Of a stretch of 64,000 bases of DNA, positions 4,879 through 44,227 are shown piece by piece. The stretch comes from a bacterium (lineage in GTDB: Bacteria; Elusimicrobiota; Elusimicrobia; UBA1565; UBA9628). The notes below the pieces were generated by a model that did not search any database, was not told the origin of the DNA, and worked only from the letters and a program-made list of their open reading frames with translations. The translations under genes were made by a program, and so were the position numbers. Location of the stretch: positions 1-64,000 of the forward strand of contig JAJZAK010000005.1 of NCBI GenBank assembly GCA_021799485.1, written 5' to 3'. The first letter of the stretch is position 1, and each line of letters starts with the position of its first letter.

Positions 4879-6873
4879 GTGAGCCCTGAGACGGCGTCCG
4901 CCTCGAAAGCATCCCCTTTGCGCTTCTGCGAGAGCCCCTTCGGCTACGCCCGGCGCAAGACCCGCGTCGTCATGGTGGGACGGGTCGGGGTCGGGGGAAA
5001 CAATCCTATCCGCCTTCAGTCCATGACGACGACGGACACCATGGACGCCGAGAGCACGTTTCGCCAGACCGTGAGCCTTGCCCGGGCCGGCTGCGAGATC
5101 GTCCGCATCACGACCCCGACCGTGGGAGACGCCCGCAAGATGGGCGAGGTCAAGGAACGGCTCGTCAAATCGGGCCTGGATGTCCCGTTGGTCGCGGACA
5201 TCCACTTTTCGCCGCAAGCGGCGATGGAGGCCGCCGAATTCGCCGAAAAGGTGAGGATCAACCCCGGCAATTTCGCCGACTCGAAGCGCTTCCTCCAGCG
5301 GGAATACACCGACGCGGAGTACGCGGAGGAACTGGAGCGGATCGAGGAGGTCTTTGGGCCTTTGGTCTTGAAGCTCAAGCGCTTGAAGCGGGCCCTTCGC
5401 ATCGGTTCCAATCACGGATCGCTTTCCGATCGCATCATGAACCGCTATGGCGACAGCCCGCTCGGCATGGTCGAAAGCGCGCTTGAATATCTGGCGGTCT
5501 GCGAGAAGCACGGCTTTTATGACGTCGTCTTTTCCATGAAGGCCTCCAATCCCAAGGTGATGATCGAGGCCTACAGGCTTCTCGTGGCGAGGCTCGACGC
5601 CGAGGGGCGCGACTACCCCATCCACCTGGGAGTGACCGAGGCCGGCGGGGGAGAAGACGGGCGCATCAAATCCGCGATCGGCATCGGCGCCCTTCTCGCG
5701 GACGGCATCGGCGACACGATCCGGGTCTCCCTGACCGAGGACCCGGAACTTGAAATTCCAGTCGCCCGCCATCTGGCGAAGCCTTTCCAAGAAAGGCCCG
5801 CCGAGAGGCCCTTGAGCGGCGTCGAAAAACGATCCTATTGCCGGGATGTTTTCGATTTCAGCCGCCGCCCGGCCTCCGTCATCGTCCTCGGCCCGGTCCG
5901 AGTCGGCGGCGAGGAGCCCGTGCGCGCCATGGCCGGTGCCGGCCATGGCGCCGCTGCGCCGGCGGCCCTTCAAAAGCTCGCCGCGAAATCGCTCGACCTC
6001 CTTCCCGAGATTTTGTCCTTCGAGGTGCGCTCGCGCGAGGATCTCGACGCGGCGCGCAAGGCCGTCGGCTTCCGCGCGGCGTCGAAGCTTCCGGTCGCGA
6101 TCGCCGGCATCTTCGGCGGCGCCGAGCCGCCTTCTTCCGAGGCTCTCGATCTCTTCGACCTGGTCGGTCTGGAGAGATCTTCCCCGCGGGCTTGGACGGA
6201 GTTCTTGGGCTTGGCGTCGGCGCGGCGCAAGCCCGTTCTTGTCGAGGCTCCTGACGCGGACGGGGCCATGGACCGATTAACGCCCGCGTTGCGGCTGCAT
6301 GCGCCGGCGCTCGTCGGCCTCGCGGGCGGCGCGAAAGACGAGGCGGGCCTTCTTAAGGAGTACCGCAAGCTCGCCTCCTTGGCCGCGGACGCGCCTATTC
6401 TCATCCGCGCTCCGCGCCGGGACGACGAGGAAAGCCGCGTTCTCGGCTCCGCGCTCTTGATCGGAAGCCTCCTCGCCGACGGCATCGGCGACGCCGCGAC
6501 TCTTGACGGCTCTCTTGAGCCGGCACGCGCTCTTGAGCTGCTCTACAATGTCTTGCAAGGGGCCGGAGCCAGGGTCGTCAAGGCCGAGTTCGTCTCCTGC
6601 CCCTCCTGCGGCCGCACGCTTTTCGATCTTCAGACCACGACCGAGCGCATCCGCCAAAAGACGGGCCATTTGAAGGGCGTCAAAATCGCCGTCATGGGCT
6701 GCATCGTCAACGGGCCCGGCGAGATGGCGGACGCCCACTTTGGCTACGTCGGGGGCGCCCCCGGCAAGATCAATCTCTACGTCGGCAAGGACTGCGTCAA
6801 GAAAGGAATTCCCTCCGAGGAAGCCGTCGACGCCCTGATCGCCTTGATCAAGGCCCACGGCAAGTGGGCCTAA
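4879..6873 (+). CDS. ispG: 4-hydroxy-3-methylbut-2-enyl diphosphate synthase, long (insert-containing) form
   Basis: A 664-residue IspG (GcpE), the penultimate enzyme of the MEP isoprenoid pathway. It reductively converts MEcPP to HMBPP with a [4Fe-4S] cluster. The N-terminal TIM barrel begins 'FCESPFGYARRKTR' and includes 'DIHFSPQAA' and 'KVRINPGN'. An insert domain of about 250 residues separates it from the C-terminal cluster domain, as in Chlamydiae, Bacteroidetes and plants. Cluster ligands are in 'CPSCGRTLFDLQ' near residue 574 and 'GCIVNGPGE' near residue 612. The start is GTG 4879. The C-terminus ends 'HGKWA', shorter than the copy near 9478 would give. Confidence 0.93.
   Translation: MSPETASASKASPLRFCESPFGYARRKTRVVMVGRVGVGGNNPIRLQSMTTTDTMDAESTFRQTVSLARAGCEIVRITTPTVGDARKMGEVKERLVKSGLDVPLVADIHFSPQAAMEAAEFAEKVRINPGNFADSKRFLQREYTDAEYAEELERIEEVFGPLVLKLKRLKRALRIGSNHGSLSDRIMNRYGDSPLGMVESALEYLAVCEKHGFYDVVFSMKASNPKVMIEAYRLLVARLDAEGRDYPIHLGVTEAGGGEDGRIKSAIGIGALLADGIGDTIRVSLTEDPELEIPVARHLAKPFQERPAERPLSGVEKRSYCRDVFDFSRRPASVIVLGPVRVGGEEPVRAMAGAGHGAAAPAALQKLAAKSLDLLPEILSFEVRSREDLDAARKAVGFRAASKLPVAIAGIFGGAEPPSSEALDLFDLVGLERSSPRAWTEFLGLASARRKPVLVEAPDADGAMDRLTPALRLHAPALVGLAGGAKDEAGLLKEYRKLASLAADAPILIRAPRRDDEESRVLGSALLIGSLLADGIGDAATLDGSLEPARALELLYNVLQGAGARVVKAEFVSCPSCGRTLFDLQTTTERIRQKTGHLKGVKIAVMGCIVNGPGEMADAHFGYVGGAPGKINLYVGKDCVKKGIPSEEAVDALIALIKAHGKWA
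6751..6869 (+). repeat. 119-bp direct repeat, copy A (3' end of ispG)
   Basis: Positions 6751-6869, the last 119 coding bases before the final Ala codon of ispG is completed, recur at 9360-9478 in the same orientation. Only one base differs (A6838 against T9447). The distance between copies is 2609 bases. Confidence 0.95.
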
Positions 6874-6901
6874 AGTCGGGGGTCAGGTCTTCATAATTCA
6901 C

Positions 6902-7159
6902 GTGTCCGGCACCGGCTCGGCCGACGTCCAATGGATTCGCATCCCGGGCGGGAGTTTCATGATGGGGATGGACGATTCGAACAGTAATTTCAGCGATGCC
7001 AAGGCCGTGCACGAGGTGGCGGTTCCTTCTTTTGACATGTCGAAGACCTTGGTGACGAACAAGCAGTATCAAGCCTGCGTGGACGCCGGGGCGGACGGAA
7101 CGGGGAAAGACTGGAGCGGCGGCAAGCTCGCGGTGGACTTCCATGGCGCTTCGCTCTAA
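6902..7159 (+). pseudogene. N-terminal fragment of a formylglycine-generating-enzyme (SUMF1/FGE) domain
   Basis: An 85-residue frame from GTG 6902 shows the opening of an FGE-sulfatase domain: 'WIRIPGGSFMMGMDD' followed by 'AVHEVAVPSFDMSKTLVTN'. Complete domains of this family run to about 220 residues, so more than half is missing and the frame ends shortly after 'DGTGKDWSGGK'. It overlaps the start of the ankyrin-caspase gene by 17 bases. FGE-like domains are frequent partners or fusions of bacterial caspase-like proteases, so this may be what remains of a neighbour or fused domain. It is probably non-functional. Confidence 0.65.
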
Positions 7160-8732
7160 ATTCTTCCCCGGGGCGCCGCTCGCCGCCGCCCTGCTGGCGG
7201 CCGTTTTATGTCCGCCCGCCTTCGCCAAGAGCCTGAGCGCCCGGCTCTATGAGGCCGCTCGCGACGGCGACGCGGGTTCGGTGCAGGCGCTCCTTGACCA
7301 GGGTGCCGATCCCAACGCGCGGCATGGCGGCTGGATGATCCCGCCTTTCTTCTACTTCGCCAGCGGAGAAACGCCCTTATGCGCGGCGGCCAGGATCGGC
7401 CATGCCGATGTCGCGTCGTTGCTCCTGAAAGGCGGCGCGGACCGGGAGAAGACATGCCTCGGCGATGTTGCCGCGCCCATAGTCGGGTTATGGATCGGCC
7501 ATGGCTATACGCCTCTCCTGGTCGCCCTCAAGAAAAATAACGTAGAAGCGGTGAAAGCTCTCTTGGCCGGATCGGCCGATCAAGCCATTAGAGACGTTGT
7601 CTCTCAAAGGGCTGCGCTTGGAGCTTGGGGGATAACGCGGAGCATCGGAAACGTACAAACGGGGACCTCATTTGGCCTTGTCTTTTACTTCCTCCCTTAC
7701 TGGGAGGTCATGGATAGCGCCAGCACGCTGTTGGCTGGACTGCAGAAACAAGGCGATTTTCGCGCGACACGAGCCGTTCTCGCGGCCATCGGCGCCAATC
7801 CGAACGCTTCGAGAAACCTTTGGGATAAAATCGCCTTCGGGATCTCAAACGGCGACGTCGACGCCGTGAAATGGGCGGCGGCCAATAGTTGGCAGGGGCA
7901 AAAGCCGTCGCCAGCCGGGACGGCCGCGGCGGGGAGTTCGGACATGGAGTCGCAGGTCCGCCAGATCGAGGACAAGATCGTCTCGGACGTGGACGTGCCG
8001 CGATTCAAGCGGCGGCCAGAAAACCCGGACGCCATCGCCGTGGTCGCCGGCATCAGCCGCTACCAACTGCCTCTTCCGCGGGCGATGTATGCGCGCCGCG
8101 ACGCCGCGACGGTCTACCGATACCTTCTGAGGCTGGGCGTGAAGCCAAGCCGCGTCAAGCTCCTGCTGGACGATAAGGCGACCGGAGGAGCCCTCAAGTA
8201 CGCCCTCAACCGCTGGCTCCCGGACAACGCGAAGCCCGGCTCGACCGTCTACTTCTACTTCTCGGGCCACGGCGCCCCGGACGTCGGGTCGAACAGCGCC
8301 TACCTCGTGCCCTGGGACGGCGACCCCTCGGACTTAAAGGACACCGCCGTCGCGCTTGCGGACGTCTACGGGCGGCTCGGAAGGCTCGGGGCCAAGCACG
8401 TGCTCGTGGCGCTCGATTCGTGTTTTTCAGGCGCGGGCGGGCGCTCCGTCATCGTGCCGGGGGCGCGGCCTCTCGTGACGCGGCTGACGCAGGCGCTGCT
8501 GCCGCCCGGCGTCACGGCCATGACGGCCGCCCGGGGGGACCAGATCACGCAAGTCGACAAAGCCGCGGGGCACGGGCTTTTTACCTACTACTTCCTGCGC
8601 GGCCTCAACGAGGACATGGACGATGTCCGCAAGCTATGCGCGTATGTCGAGACGAAAGTGGCGGATCAATCGGCGCTGGCGGGCGTCCCGCAGAATCCTC
8701 TCTGCATGGGCCCGGACTTCGTGATCAAGTAA
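7143..8732 (+). CDS. Secreted ankyrin-repeat caspase-like (C14) peptidase
   Basis: A 529-residue protein with a signal peptide (about residues 1-28, ending 'PPAFAKS'). Ankyrin repeats follow at about residues 30-150 ('DAGSVQALLDQGADPN', 'GHADVASLLLKGGADRE'), then a less regular region, and a caspase-like domain at about 295-525. The catalytic histidine is in 'YFYFSGHGAPD' and the cysteine in 'ALDSCFSGAGGRS', the two hallmarks of peptidase clan CD. The export signal predicts a periplasmic or extracellular location. It lies inside a segment bounded by ispG-derived direct repeats. A relative with the same two domains is encoded at 41738-44227. Confidence 0.85.
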   Translation: MALRSKFFPGAPLAAALLAAVLCPPAFAKSLSARLYEAARDGDAGSVQALLDQGADPNARHGGWMIPPFFYFASGETPLCAAARIGHADVASLLLKGGADREKTCLGDVAAPIVGLWIGHGYTPLLVALKKNNVEAVKALLAGSADQAIRDVVSQRAALGAWGITRSIGNVQTGTSFGLVFYFLPYWEVMDSASTLLAGLQKQGDFRATRAVLAAIGANPNASRNLWDKIAFGISNGDVDAVKWAAANSWQGQKPSPAGTAAAGSSDMESQVRQIEDKIVSDVDVPRFKRRPENPDAIAVVAGISRYQLPLPRAMYARRDAATVYRYLLRLGVKPSRVKLLLDDKATGGALKYALNRWLPDNAKPGSTVYFYFSGHGAPDVGSNSAYLVPWDGDPSDLKDTAVALADVYGRLGRLGAKHVLVALDSCFSGAGGRSVIVPGARPLVTRLTQALLPPGVTAMTAARGDQITQVDKAAGHGLFTYYFLRGLNEDMDDVRKLCAYVETKVADQSALAGVPQNPLCMGPDFVIK

Positions 8733-8751: not shown

Positions 8752-9036
8752 ATGGCGGCGCTGGATGACGCCGAGAACGTCCTGCTGGCGGCCGCACTGC
8801 TCGACGCGGATCAGGCCCGAAAGGCGCGCGAGCGCTTGGCCGCTTTGAAGCTCCCCTCGGACTATTTCCCTCAGGTCGCGCTTGATCTGGAGCTGGCCAG
8901 CAGGGAGGCGATTCTGGCCGCGCTCTCAAAGGCGTGGAATATCCCGGTTGCTTCTCCGTCGGCCTTGAATGGCCAGGATACGGTGTGGGACTGGGAGTCG
9001 TTGGCTTCCTACGAAATGTGCGGTAGGAATCTTTGA
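8752..9036 (+). CDS. Small protein resembling a GspE/MshEN N-terminal domain
   Basis: A 94-residue frame from ATG 8752, 19 bases after the caspase stop. Residues 1-65 are helical and recall the N-terminal domain found in type II secretion and type IV pilus ATPases: 'DYFPQVALDLELASREAILAA' then 'WNIPVASPSAL'. No ATPase domain follows; the frame ends at TGA 9034-9036. It could be a remnant of a larger gene or a free-standing domain. No clear ribosome binding site is seen. Confidence 0.4.
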   Translation: MAALDDAENVLLAAALLDADQARKARERLAALKLPSDYFPQVALDLELASREAILAALSKAWNIPVASPSALNGQDTVWDWESLASYEMCGRNL

Positions 9037-9052
9037 CTGCCACTCTGCGCCG

Positions 9053-9360
9053 ATCAAGAGAATTTTTCTCTGGCTGTGGCCCGTCCTGGCGCTTGCGGGC
9101 GAAATCAAACGAGGGCTCGATCAATCGGCGCCGGGCAAGAAGCTTCGCAGGGACGTCGTCCCGGGGTCTGGGGACAAGGCCTTTCGGCGCGCCGATGAGC
9201 TGGTCCAAGAGGCGATTGAGAAAGGAGCCGTCGAGGCGGTCTTTGGTCCCGCGGACGGCGGTTGGATGAAAAGCCGCTACCGGATCGGCAATTCTTGGGT
9301 CGACGGCTTCTTGACGACGCTCGATATCGGCGCGGACTCCAATCCTTGTCGGGACGAAAG
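9053..9360 (+). pseudogene. Remnant of a secreted hypothetical protein, truncated by the ispG-tail copy
   Basis: From 9053 a frame reads like a signal peptide ('IKRIFLWLWPVLALAGE') followed by about 85 plausible residues ending '...IGADSNPCRDE'. There is no ATG/GTG/TTG at the expected start (an ATC stands there). The frame is cut at 9360, where the 119-bp ispG-derived repeat begins out of frame. The function is not recognised. The missing start and the abrupt junction argue for a broken gene. Confidence 0.4.
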
Positions 9361-9509
9361 GGGGCGCCCCCGGCAAGATCAATCTCTACGTCGGCAAGGA
9401 CTGCGTCAAGAAAGGAATTCCCTCCGAGGAAGCCGTCGACGCCCTGTTCGCCTTGATCAAGGCCCACGGCAAGTGGGCGGAGCCTCCCGCCCTCGCCGAA
9501 TCTCTTTAG
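9360..9509 (+). pseudogene. Duplicated 3' end of ispG (direct repeat copy B) with alternative C-terminus
   Basis: 9360-9478 matches 6751-6869 of ispG in 118 of 119 bases. In the ispG frame it encodes the C-terminal residues with one change (Ile to Phe), then continues 'AEPPALAESL' to TAG at 9507-9509, where the real gene stops after 'HGKWA'. Related IspG proteins often carry a short tail after 'HG(R/K)W', so this copy may hold the original end. No start codon serves it here. Confidence 0.85.
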
Positions 9510-41737: not shown

Positions 41738-44227
41738 TCAGCGCAGGCCGATGTCGGCGCCCTCGAGGACGGGGTCCTGGATGTCGTTCTGCCTGCGCGC
41801 GGCCTTCTCCACTCGCGGCTTGATGAAATCGTAGAGATTCCGGACGCGGCGCGGCTTTAAATTCAGGCCCTTCAGAAAATAGTAGGTCAACAGGCCGTGC
41901 CCGTGGACTTTTGAAACGGCGGCGATCTCCGTCCCCTTGGCCGCGGCCAACGCGGCCATGCGCGGCCCCAAGGGGACGCCCCCGATCCTCGTGACGACGA
42001 GGGGGCGAACTCCCTTGGCCATGACCGAGCGGGCTCCGGCGCCCGAAAAGCAGGCGTCCATGACGACGAGCGTGCGTTCGGCATGAAGGCGGGCCAGATC
42101 CGCGTAGAGCCTGTCGACGGGAAAGCCCTGGTCGCGGATGAACTCGGGAACGGCGTCCCACGGCACGAGATAGGCCGAGCGGGAGCGCGGGTCGGGCGCG
42201 CCGTGGCCCGAAAAGTAGAAATAGACGCGGGACTTCGATCCGACGTTCTTAGGCAGATAGTCCTCGAGGTAGCTGCTCAAGCCGCTGAGCGTAGCGGCCG
42301 AATCCAAGAGGGAAATGATGTTGCCGCCGGGGACCCCGAGGGCGGCGAAATATCTCCCGGCGGCCTCGGCGTCCCTTTTGGCGAAATCGGCCCGGGGCAG
42401 GCTTCGGTAGGATTCGATCCCGACCACGAGGGCCCAGTCGTTAGGACGGCGAGGGTATCTGAAGGCAGGGCTGTCCATGTCCGAGATCGGAAGGCTTGGA
42501 GGCGGGGCCTCGGCCTTGGCGGTTTCCGAGCTTTCGAGGATTCCGACGATCTCGGGGCGCGACGGTGTTTCACGGGCGAGGTCCAAAGCCGTGAGTCCGT
42601 CATCGTCCCTAAGGCTCTCGTCGGCCCCGGCCGCAAGCAGGAGCCTCGCCAATTGGGCCGAGCCGGCCATGATCGCGTAGTCGAGGGCCGTCATGCCGAC
42701 CTGATCTTGGATATTGACGCCGGCGCCGAGGGCCAGAAGCCGCCGTGCCGCTCCGGTCCGCCGGCCCGCGGCCGCGTACATGAGCGGCGTGCGCCCCTTG
42801 TGGTCGGTCAAGTCGACTCGAGCGCCCGCGGCCACGAGGGCCGAGGCGGCGGCCGGCTGGTTCGCGTAAGCCGCCGCCATGAGCGGCGTGACCCCTCCGG
42901 CGCCGGCTTGATTGGGGTCTTGCCCCTGGCGGAGGAGCTCCGCGATTTGGGCCGCGCTGCCGCTCCGCGCGGCCTGATAGATCGGGCCGCGCGGGAGGAT
43001 AAACTTGAGCGCGCGGCGGCCCGGATGTCCCCGGACGGAAGGCGCGGCCGCCGGCTGGGGAGTCGGACGAGAGACCGCCGAGTCGGGGGAGGCGGTCGTC
43101 TGCCAACTGAAGGCCGGGGAATCCTCGGCACCCGAGCCGGAAGGCGCCGCGCTTGGGGCGTCGCCGACCTCCGGGCCGCCCATCTCGGCCAGGAGTTCGT
43201 CGGAGGCCTTCTTTTTCCGGCGGCGCTCCCTCGATGCGGCGGCCTTGGCCTCGTCGTTTTGAATCTCCGCCAGATCGCCTCGGCAGTCCGCGAGAGAGCG
43301 CTGCGCCTCTTGGATTTGCCGCGCCAGGTCTCCGCCGGGAACGGAGGGACCCTTCGCGGCCAGCGCGCTCAGGCGCTGGTCCAAGAGGGAGCGCGCCGAG
43401 GACCCGCTCTTCGCGCGATGGCAGGGCAAGGGCCGGCAGGCCCACCCGCCGGAGAGGGCCTGGGCGGGCCGGCCGTAGAGGCCGCAAAATGGCTTTTGGT
43501 CGGCGCCTTCGATATCGAGCGCAAGCCGGCTCCAGTCGCTCGCGGTATAAAGGCAGGCGGTCCGGCCGCCGCGGAGCCGGACCCGGACGGTGTTCGATTC
43601 GCAGAGGCAGGCGCGCCCCTTGGGGCAAATCAAGGCTTCCGGAGCCGCCGAACCCGGGCAGGATCGACCGTTGGAGTCGACATAGCCGCCGGAGAGATCG
43701 GGCCTATCCGATCTGCCGGGTTTCTTGCCGAGTTCCGCCAGAAGATCGTCTCGAATCGAGGCTTTCCGCCGCGCCCGCTCCTCGTCCGCTTTCTCCGCGG
43801 CGTTCATGGCGCGGATCCGATCGCGGCAAGCGGCGTCCATGGTCTGGAATTTTTGGAGGGCCTGACGCATCTGCTCAAGGGCTTTTTGCCGCGCCGCTTC
43901 GGCGGCTTCCTGGCTTTGGCTCCGGCCCCCGCCGAAAAGAAGCTCGCCGATGTCCTGGCCGAGTTGGTAGCCTAACTGCGAAGCCCCTTGCATAAGGAGG
44001 CCTTGCATGGCATTGCGGGGATTGTAGGCTCCGCCGAATGACGAGCCGCCCCCCGCCGACCCGTAGCCGCAATGGCTCGCGCAGTCGGTTCCCGGAGGCT
44101 GGTTAACGCCGCCGGGATCGCAGGCGCAGTGGACTGAGACCAAGCTCTGGGCTTGGGACGGCGAAGCGCGAAAAACCAAGCATGCGCCCGCCGCTAGTAG
44201 GGAAACCGTTCGGAGATCCCGCCCCAT
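41738..44227 (-). CDS. Secreted ankyrin-repeat caspase-like (C14) peptidase, large form
   Basis: An 829-residue protein with a signal peptide (to about residue 27, 'SPSQAQS'), a Gly/Cys-rich and helical N-terminal region with several paired cysteines (about residues 30-290), an Ala/Pro linker, four or five ankyrin repeats (about 410-565; 'GVTPLMAAAYANQPAAASAL', 'GRTPLMYAAAG') and a caspase-like domain (about 595-820). The catalytic His is in 'YFYFSGHGAPD' and the Cys in 'VVMDACFSGAGARS'. TATAAT on the minus strand at 44247-44242 gives a leader of only a few bases. It is a paralogue of the 7143-8732 protein. Confidence 0.88.
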   Translation of the reverse strand: MGRDLRTVSLLAAGACLVFRASPSQAQSLVSVHCACDPGGVNQPPGTDCASHCGYGSAGGGSSFGGAYNPRNAMQGLLMQGASQLGYQLGQDIGELLFGGGRSQSQEAAEAARQKALEQMRQALQKFQTMDAACRDRIRAMNAAEKADEERARRKASIRDDLLAELGKKPGRSDRPDLSGGYVDSNGRSCPGSAAPEALICPKGRACLCESNTVRVRLRGGRTACLYTASDWSRLALDIEGADQKPFCGLYGRPAQALSGGWACRPLPCHRAKSGSSARSLLDQRLSALAAKGPSVPGGDLARQIQEAQRSLADCRGDLAEIQNDEAKAAASRERRRKKKASDELLAEMGGPEVGDAPSAAPSGSGAEDSPAFSWQTTASPDSAVSRPTPQPAAAPSVRGHPGRRALKFILPRGPIYQAARSGSAAQIAELLRQGQDPNQAGAGGVTPLMAAAYANQPAAASALVAAGARVDLTDHKGRTPLMYAAAGRRTGAARRLLALGAGVNIQDQVGMTALDYAIMAGSAQLARLLLAAGADESLRDDDGLTALDLARETPSRPEIVGILESSETAKAEAPPPSLPISDMDSPAFRYPRRPNDWALVVGIESYRSLPRADFAKRDAEAAGRYFAALGVPGGNIISLLDSAATLSGLSSYLEDYLPKNVGSKSRVYFYFSGHGAPDPRSRSAYLVPWDAVPEFIRDQGFPVDRLYADLARLHAERTLVVMDACFSGAGARSVMAKGVRPLVVTRIGGVPLGPRMAALAAAKGTEIAAVSKVHGHGLLTYYFLKGLNLKPRRVRNLYDFIKPRVEKAARRQNDIQDPVLEGADIGLR

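What the first reader, a model, noticed from the sequence alone, without database searches (positions are those of the whole stretch)
7143..8732. Secreted ankyrin-caspase protein in a mobile-looking islet
The combination of signal peptide, ankyrin repeats and an intact His/Cys caspase dyad is uncommon. Most described bacterial caspase-like proteins are cytoplasmic. Export suggests an extracellular or periplasmic target. The neighbouring FGE-domain fragment fits the known link of caspase and FGE domains. It could be a toxin, a self-death effector or a predation or symbiosis factor.
Basis: partly seen in the sequence, partly recalled or inferred. Interest (0 to 1): 0.65.

Follow-up and report, generated by a model that had tools for sequence, protein, structure and literature searches.

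The report
Exported ankyrin-caspase in inserted DNA islet
An Elusimicrobiota bacterium carries, in a recently inserted piece of DNA, a gene for a caspase-like protein-cutting enzyme that appears to be sent out of the cytoplasm; it belongs to a large, little-described group of exported bacterial caspases whose targets are unknown.

Summary
ORF 7143-8732 (+, 529 aa) has a Sec-type N-terminus, ankyrin repeats (about 33-149) and a C-terminal caspase domain (about 290-529) with His376 and Cys427. The model's caspase part is confident and matches caspases, metacaspases and MALT1 (Z about 21-23). The gene sits in a 2.6-kb insertion bounded by a 119-bp duplication of the ispG 3' end; a congener has the uninterrupted site. 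The FGE piece is a truncated remnant, not an intact partner; the two ORFs downstream have no known relatives. "Uncommon" is wrong in this neighbourhood: of 102 related caspase ORFs, 88 carry an export-like N-terminus (61 with a lipobox) and 34 of those 88 have ankyrin repeats. The caspase core stays constant while N-terminal domains are exchanged. The group is expanded in the window's own order (39 of 43 genomes), and an exported DUF4384 protein recurs with it (48 of 54 DUF4384 genomes also have a caspase). The target lacks that neighbour. Best reading: an exported Arg/Lys-type caspase-like protease acting in the envelope, ankyrin repeats choosing the substrate. Toxin and cell-death readings are not excluded. 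Function is untested.

The parts
7143..8732 (+). Exported ankyrin-caspase protein, 529 aa: signal peptide about 1-28, ankyrin repeats about 33-149, helical linker about 150-280, caspase domain about 290-529 (His376, Cys427; Asp320 and Asp425 predicted S1-pocket acids; flexible loop 430-448 with Arg434)
6751..6869 (.). First copy of a 119-bp direct repeat: 3' end of ispG (left border of the insertion)
   Evidence: once only in G002
9360..9478 (.). Second copy of the 119-bp repeat: displaced original ispG 3' end, joined to the native downstream sequence (right border)
6879..6926 (.). 48-nt interspersed repeat with one arm of a palindrome (GGGGTCAGGTCTTCA...), first thing after the ispG stop
   Evidence: full hairpin seen on contig C41
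6902..7159 (+). Truncated FGE-sulfatase domain remnant (85 aa); its end overlaps the caspase start by 17 nt in another frame
   Evidence: 60-64% identical to FGE domains on contigs C33 and C15
8752..9036 (+). 94-aa ORF after the caspase, no family, no relative in 11 other genomes searched; probably a fragment
9002..9352 (+). Open stretch of 117 codons, no family, no relative in 11 other genomes searched; probably a fragment
4879..6873 (+). ispG (GcpE), the insertion target
41738..44227 (-). Second exported ankyrin-caspase of the window, 829 aa, same caspase family (core 45% identical)

Best explanation
The gene makes a caspase-fold cysteine protease that is exported by Sec and stays, freely soluble, in the periplasm or beyond the outer membrane. 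Shown by sequence and model: the domain features, the fold, the conservation of the dyad and of the two Asp at the positions that make metacaspase/orthocaspase S1 pockets acidic, the insertion, and that most close relatives look exported. Inferred: it cuts after Arg or Lys; the ankyrin repeats hold or choose the substrate; the flexible loop after Cys427, with the nearly invariant Arg434, may be a self-cleavage site that switches it on; the substrates are proteins of the cell's own envelope or of its surroundings. The present copy reached this locus recently in a 2.6-kb insertion at the ispG 3' end and is one of at least seven caspase loci of the genome, whose N-terminal domains differ. Within the wider group some members lie next to an exported DUF4384 protein; this copy has none beside it and would have to use the one on contig C56, if any.
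For: Fold: caspase part pLDDT mostly above 90; Z 22.9 to metacaspase 4, 22.8 to MALT1, 21.4 to caspase-9, 21.0 to Geobacter GSU0716, about 200 residues aligned. D320, H376, D425 and C427 invariant in 57 of 57, H and C also in 27 of 27; the profile aligns these motifs with metacaspase NDA, GHG and DSCHSG. Export: 88 of 102 distinct complete ORFs called exported, 61 with a lipobox, against 51 of 179 non-overlapping control ORFs, 5 with a lipobox. Ankyrin in 34 of 88 N-termini. The N-terminal type changes at least 20 times on the core tree of 101 rows. DUF4384 co-occurrence, 48 of 54 genomes, and adjacency. A CsgG/LpoB-like domain fused to DUF4384 in one partner points to the envelope. Insertion.
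Against: No activity, localisation or substrate data exist. The signal-peptide call is rule-based. Dyad geometry was judged from the fold match and strand ends, not from measured distances. The target has no DUF4384 neighbour. Its place in the caspase tree is unstable between two methods. The best-scoring relative is only 51% identical over the core, so purifying selection on this very gene could not be tested.
Confidence: 0.55

Rival explanations
1. Secreted toxin or predation factor: an exported protein with repeats and a C-terminal caspase used as toxin domain (the Tox-Caspase idea of polymorphic toxin systems).
For: The architecture signal peptide + ankyrin + C-terminal caspase fits the passages read in PMC3482391. 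Mobile islet. Lineage expansion.
Against: In polymorphic toxins the delivery part is constant and the C-terminal toxin varies; here the caspase is constant and the N-terminus varies. No recurrent small immunity-like gene downstream: the recurrent same-strand neighbours are DUF4384 proteins and, in some Nitrospirota-type loci, nucleotidyltransferases. Most relatives carry a lipobox, which ties them to a membrane. No phage or viral relative.
Confidence: 0.18
2. Self-death effector: on damage of the envelope the protease is triggered and lyses the producing cell.
For: Caspase fold; the PADLOC caspase model matches (2.9e-15); death roles are discussed for bacterial caspases (PMC3501461 passages).
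Against: Placed outside the cytoplasm it cannot reach cytoplasmic death partners; no NACHT, gasdermin or EACC1 partner in the islet; the NCBIfam EACC1-caspase model matches far below its cut-off (64.4 of 140 bits).
Confidence: 0.12
3. Passenger: the islet is a decaying collection of gene pieces and the caspase ORF is simply not yet broken.
For: FGE piece truncated; two ORFs downstream without relatives; no close ortholog in the congeners G001 and G002.
Against: Full-length ORF with every invariant core residue, intact export signal, and an ankyrin-caspase architecture like that of a full-length relative (G031, 36-39% over most of the length).
Confidence: 0.13
4. Assembly artefact: the islet was joined to ispG in error.
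For: Metagenome-type assembly in 61 contigs; a 119-bp repeat at the borders.
Against: Contigs C17 and C33 share an exact 127-bp end, which looks like a 127-mer assembly graph (inference); the 119-bp repeat is shorter and has a mismatch, so it would not create such a join. The sequence right of the second copy is native.
Confidence: 0.04

Closest known systems
Bacterial caspase homologues / metacaspases, Pfam PF00656 (MEROPS C14), surveyed in PMC3501461
   Same: Caspase fold, His/Cys dyad, extra protein-interaction domains, some with an N-terminal helix that may be a signal peptide
   Different: That survey found none in Elusimicrobia and does not use the word ankyrin; here nearly the whole related set looks exported, most as lipoproteins
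Orthocaspases and pseudo-orthocaspases of cyanobacteria (PMC6426788, PMC7475262)
   Same: Two conserved Asp in the specificity pocket; DUF4384 known as a fused accessory domain; a TAT-like N-terminus in YS forms
   Different: There DUF4384 is fused and the TAT-like forms lack the dyad; here DUF4384 is a separate exported gene and the dyad is intact
Desti_1504 of Desulfomonile tiedjei (PMC3932732, legend)
   Same: Ankyrin repeats with a Peptidase C14 domain
   Different: Listed only; export and family context are not described in the passage read
Tox-Caspase domains of polymorphic toxins (PMC3482391)
   Same: Exported protein, repeats, C-terminal caspase
   Different: Here the caspase is constant and the N-terminus variable, and no immunity gene was seen
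GSU0716 of Geobacter (PDB 3bij)
   Same: Bacterial caspase fold, Z 21.0, 199 aligned, 21% identity
   Different: Deposited as an uncharacterised protein; the 265-residue chain has no ankyrin part

Membership tests
Peptidase C14 / caspase superfamily | Match above the curated PF00656 score | tested here: met
   30.3 bits, cut-off 21.4
Peptidase C14 / caspase superfamily | Caspase fold | tested here: met
   Z 20-23 to caspases, metacaspases, MALT1; Foldseek E 2.2e-8
Peptidase C14 / caspase superfamily | His/Cys catalytic dyad at equivalent positions | tested here: met
   H376 and C427 invariant in 57 of 57; GHG and DxC motifs align with metacaspases; distances not measured
Peptidase C14 / caspase superfamily | Proteolytic activity | not testable with these tools
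   No assay
C14B basic-P1 group (metacaspase, orthocaspase, paracaspase) | Acidic S1 pocket with two conserved Asp | tested here: met
   D320 and D425 invariant in 57 of 57; their place in the pocket rests, passages of PMC6426788 and recalled metacaspase structures
Orthocaspase proper | p20 domain without a p10 domain (recalled definition) | tested here: inconclusive
   Model has strands and helices at 457-522 after the flexible loop; PF00656 covered to position 222 of 233
Sec-exported protein | N-terminal signal peptide | tested here: met
   Rule-based, helix 11-21 in the model; no SignalP, no experiment
Caspase-FGE system | Intact FGE domain fused or adjacent | tested here: not met
   Only positions 4-56 of 255 remain
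Caspase-EACC1 conflict system | NF047832 above its cut-off | tested here: not met
   64.4 of 140 bits
Polymorphic toxin system | Constant N-terminus, variable C-terminal toxin, immunity gene next door | tested here: not met
   Opposite pattern of variation; no recurrent immunity-like neighbour
Integrative element | Own integrase or transposase in the insert | tested here: not met
   ORFs of the islet: FGE piece, caspase, two ORFs without family
Exported caspase + DUF4384 pair | DUF4384 gene beside the caspase | tested here: not met
   The genome's one DUF4384 match lies on C56, not at the target

The most novel reading that the evidence does not exclude
Elusimicrobiota, Nitrospirota, Nitrospinota and some deltaproteobacterial groups share an envelope-located caspase system: lipoprotein or Sec-exported caspases with interchangeable sensor domains (ankyrin, propeller, PDZ, Sel1) that act with an exported DUF4384/CsgG-like protein, so that caspase-type proteolysis is carried out outside the cytoplasm. 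The window's islet shows that single members move between sites as gene cassettes.
Probability: 0.35. Interest if true: 0.75.

Novelty: new variant of a known kind. Interest (0 to 1): 0.5.

Why it matters
Bacterial caspases are mostly discussed as cytoplasmic death or immune proteases. A large related set that looks exported and often lipid-anchored, with a constant enzyme, exchangeable recognition domains and a recurring exported partner, would mean that caspase-type proteolysis also works in bacterial envelopes. It gives a clear, testable candidate pair (caspase + DUF4384 protein), in a phylum for which the 2012 survey reported none.

Tried and rejected
Phage or plasmid origin: no phage match, no viral contig relative; 129 plasmid records match only at under 60% identity, and the ten listed cover at most 44% of the query, so these are distant caspases. 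Defence system: PADLOC gives only the generic caspase model and ankyrin-type models. T4SS ankyrin effector: NCBIfam effector models match the second window protein only through its repeats, far below their cut-offs. RAYT link: the genome has one Y1_Tnp match (C45) but its locus holds no copy of the 10-nt repeat core, so the repeat was not tied to it. A first neighbour clustering gave mostly antisense shadow frames of GC-rich genes and was discarded; the second is the one used. The single-linkage cluster that suggested a CsgG partner in 15 loci proved mixed (8 segments only); the shared element is DUF4384. In the first tree one row, L155, was mis-cut; it and the long row L107_5560 were left out of the second, where the target's position changed, so no claim on its sister is made. 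The C59 match to PF00656 showed no GHG or CFSG motif in the frames I printed and was not resolved. G001's contig leaves ispG before its end, so it says nothing about the site. Statements on what is not in print rest on ten searches of one open-access library.

Full report
What is there. The open frame 7143-8732 (+) encodes 529 aa and starts at the first start codon of its frame. Pfam finds ankyrin repeats (E 1.7e-16; Ank_2 over residues 35-149) and Peptidase_C14 over 298-517 (30.3 bits, cut-off 21.4). The first 28 residues look like a Sec signal peptide without a lipobox, by eye and by my rule. The model built on 57 sequences has mean pLDDT 77.5, with the caspase part mostly above 90 and a loop at 430-448 below 50. 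Among 998 chains aligned it matches metacaspase 4 (Z 22.9), MALT1 (22.8), caspase-9 (21.4) and GSU0716 (21.0). His376 lies in strand 368-380 and Cys427 at the end of strand 419-427, where caspases carry their dyad (the latter is recalled). D320, H376, D425 and C427 are invariant in 57 of 57 aligned proteins; the profile puts the two Asp on the metacaspase NDA and DSC motifs. Passages of PMC6426788 say that two conserved Asp sit in the substrate pocket and that C14B enzymes cut after basic residues. I infer Arg/Lys specificity.

The islet. ispG ends at 6873. Its last 119 bp (6751-6869) are repeated at 9360-9478 with 99% identity. In the congener G002 ispG runs once through this end straight into the sequence that follows the second copy here (88% over 268 bp on the left, 77% over 729 columns on the right), and in four further family genomes both copies hit one and the same place. 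So 2,609 bp were added here, and the second copy is the displaced native end. Just inside the left border lies a 48-nt interspersed repeat found at 88-90% in four other places; a 22-nt pattern from it occurs five times in the genome and the reversed control pattern not at all; on C41 it forms a full hairpin. I saw no integrase in the insert. The FGE piece covers model positions 4-56 of 255 and is 60-64% identical to FGE domains on C33 and C15. The caspase fragment at the end of C17 and the FGE at the end of C33 share an exact 127-bp end within which both read the same residues, which implies a caspase-FGE fusion elsewhere in this genome. The two ORFs after the caspase have no family and no relative in 11 other genomes. 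In the 56 other genomes the best-scoring relative is 51% identical over the core, and the highest identity printed is 54% over 201 residues, so the gene is probably a recent arrival.

The family. Named relatives of the core are Elusimicrobia, Nitrospirae, Nitrospinota and deltaproteobacterial genomes; 470 of 533 pattern stretches encode a relative and the best 80 were kept. Of 57 genomes (own included) 46 match the target protein, up to 25 places in one genome. With PF00656, 62 of 294 genomes of the phylum match: 39 of the 43 of the window's own order and 23 of the other 251. The own genome has seven matches to the caspase core.

Export is the rule here. From 116 loci (L002-L037, L080-L159) I kept 102 distinct ORFs that are complete within their locus; ORFs running off an end were dropped. 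61 have a lipobox after a hydrophobic stretch, 27 a Sec-like N-terminus, 14 neither; some of the 14 are plainly short or wrongly started. Controls under the same rule: 77 of 394 other ORFs (13 lipobox; shadow frames included) and 51 of 179 non-overlapping ORFs (5 lipobox). The rule is crude and tries several start codons, in the controls too. The set was chosen by similarity to the target and does not stand for all bacterial caspases. Both motifs by regular expression: 100 of 102. Of 88 N-termini 34 match ankyrin, 4 PDZ, 2 Sel1, 2 S41. On a tree of 101 cores the label ankyrin or not (regular expression, 36 against 65) needs at least 20 changes; sister cores can differ in N-terminus (second window protein and L019).

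A recurring partner. In 99 downstream and 96 upstream flanks, the same-strand family shared across phyla is an exported protein of about 280-440 aa ending in DUF4384. A profile finds it in 17 segments, about 14 distinct loci: downstream on the same strand in Nitrospirota, Nitrospinota, deltaproteobacterial and Elusimicrobiota loci including contig C56 of this genome; upstream and fused to a CsgG/LpoB-like domain in L132 (same arrangement in L117/L034); convergent in L014. In 294 genomes 54 have DUF4384 and 48 of these have a caspase; outside the own order 12 of 23 caspase genomes have it against 6 of 228 without a caspase (Fisher 1.9e-10, not corrected for relatedness). Of 75 DUF4384 places 12 lie within 2 kb of a caspase in my partial list. 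The genome's only DUF4384 match is on C56. The target has none beside it, which counts against tying it to this pair.

What it does. I take the target for an exported Arg/Lys-type caspase-like protease with ankyrin docking, acting in or outside the envelope. Fold, dyad, export signal and insertion are shown by sequence and model; specificity, activation at Arg434 and substrates are inferred. Against a polymorphic toxin speaks the constant caspase with exchanged N-termini and the absence of an immunity gene; against a cytoplasmic death role speaks export.

What is known. PMC3501461 (passages): 671 bacterial caspases, 46 of 398 single-domain ones with one N-terminal helix that may be a signal peptide, FGE in 33, Elusimicrobia without any, no mention of ankyrin. 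PMC3932732 (passages): one ankyrin + C14 protein in Desulfomonile. PMC7475262 and PMC6426788 (passages): DUF4384 as a fused domain. PMC3482391 (passages): caspase domains as toxins or releasing peptidases of exported proteins. PMC4933709 (passages): few caspases with transmembrane helices. No paper in the library holds both Elusimicrobiota and metacaspase; the one that holds orthocaspase and lipoprotein is on cyanobacterial retroelements (listing only).

Noticed in passing
41738-44227 (-): Second ankyrin-caspase of the window, 829 aa, core 45% identical to the target, N-terminus with an export signal and possible lipobox.
   Followed up: partly
L067:5420-6607 (-), L097, L099, L100, L109, L124, L130, L148, L149, L012, L014, L132, L117: Exported DUF4384 protein recurring beside exported caspases in several phyla; in L132 fused to a CsgG/LpoB-like domain.
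   Followed up: partly
L070 start, L073 end, L072 start: Caspase-FGE fusion implied across contig ends that share exactly 127 bp; a second FGE copy is 84% identical.
   Followed up: partly
6879-6926; L062-L065; L074: Interspersed palindromic repeat GGGGTCAGGTCTTCA..., a full hairpin on C41, half of it at the islet border; carrier unknown.
   Followed up: partly
L144, L148: Tandem arrays of three exported caspases in Nitrospirota, mostly with ankyrin repeats; nucleotidyltransferase-like genes next to several such loci.
   Followed up: no
L077 / L040 (G001:C141): In G001 the contig leaves ispG before its end and runs about 190 bp into other sequence; contig-end artefact or another insertion.
   Followed up: no
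L071 (G000:C59:41419-41793): Match to the second part of PF00656 without GHG or CFSG in the frames printed; possibly a broken caspase.
   Followed up: no
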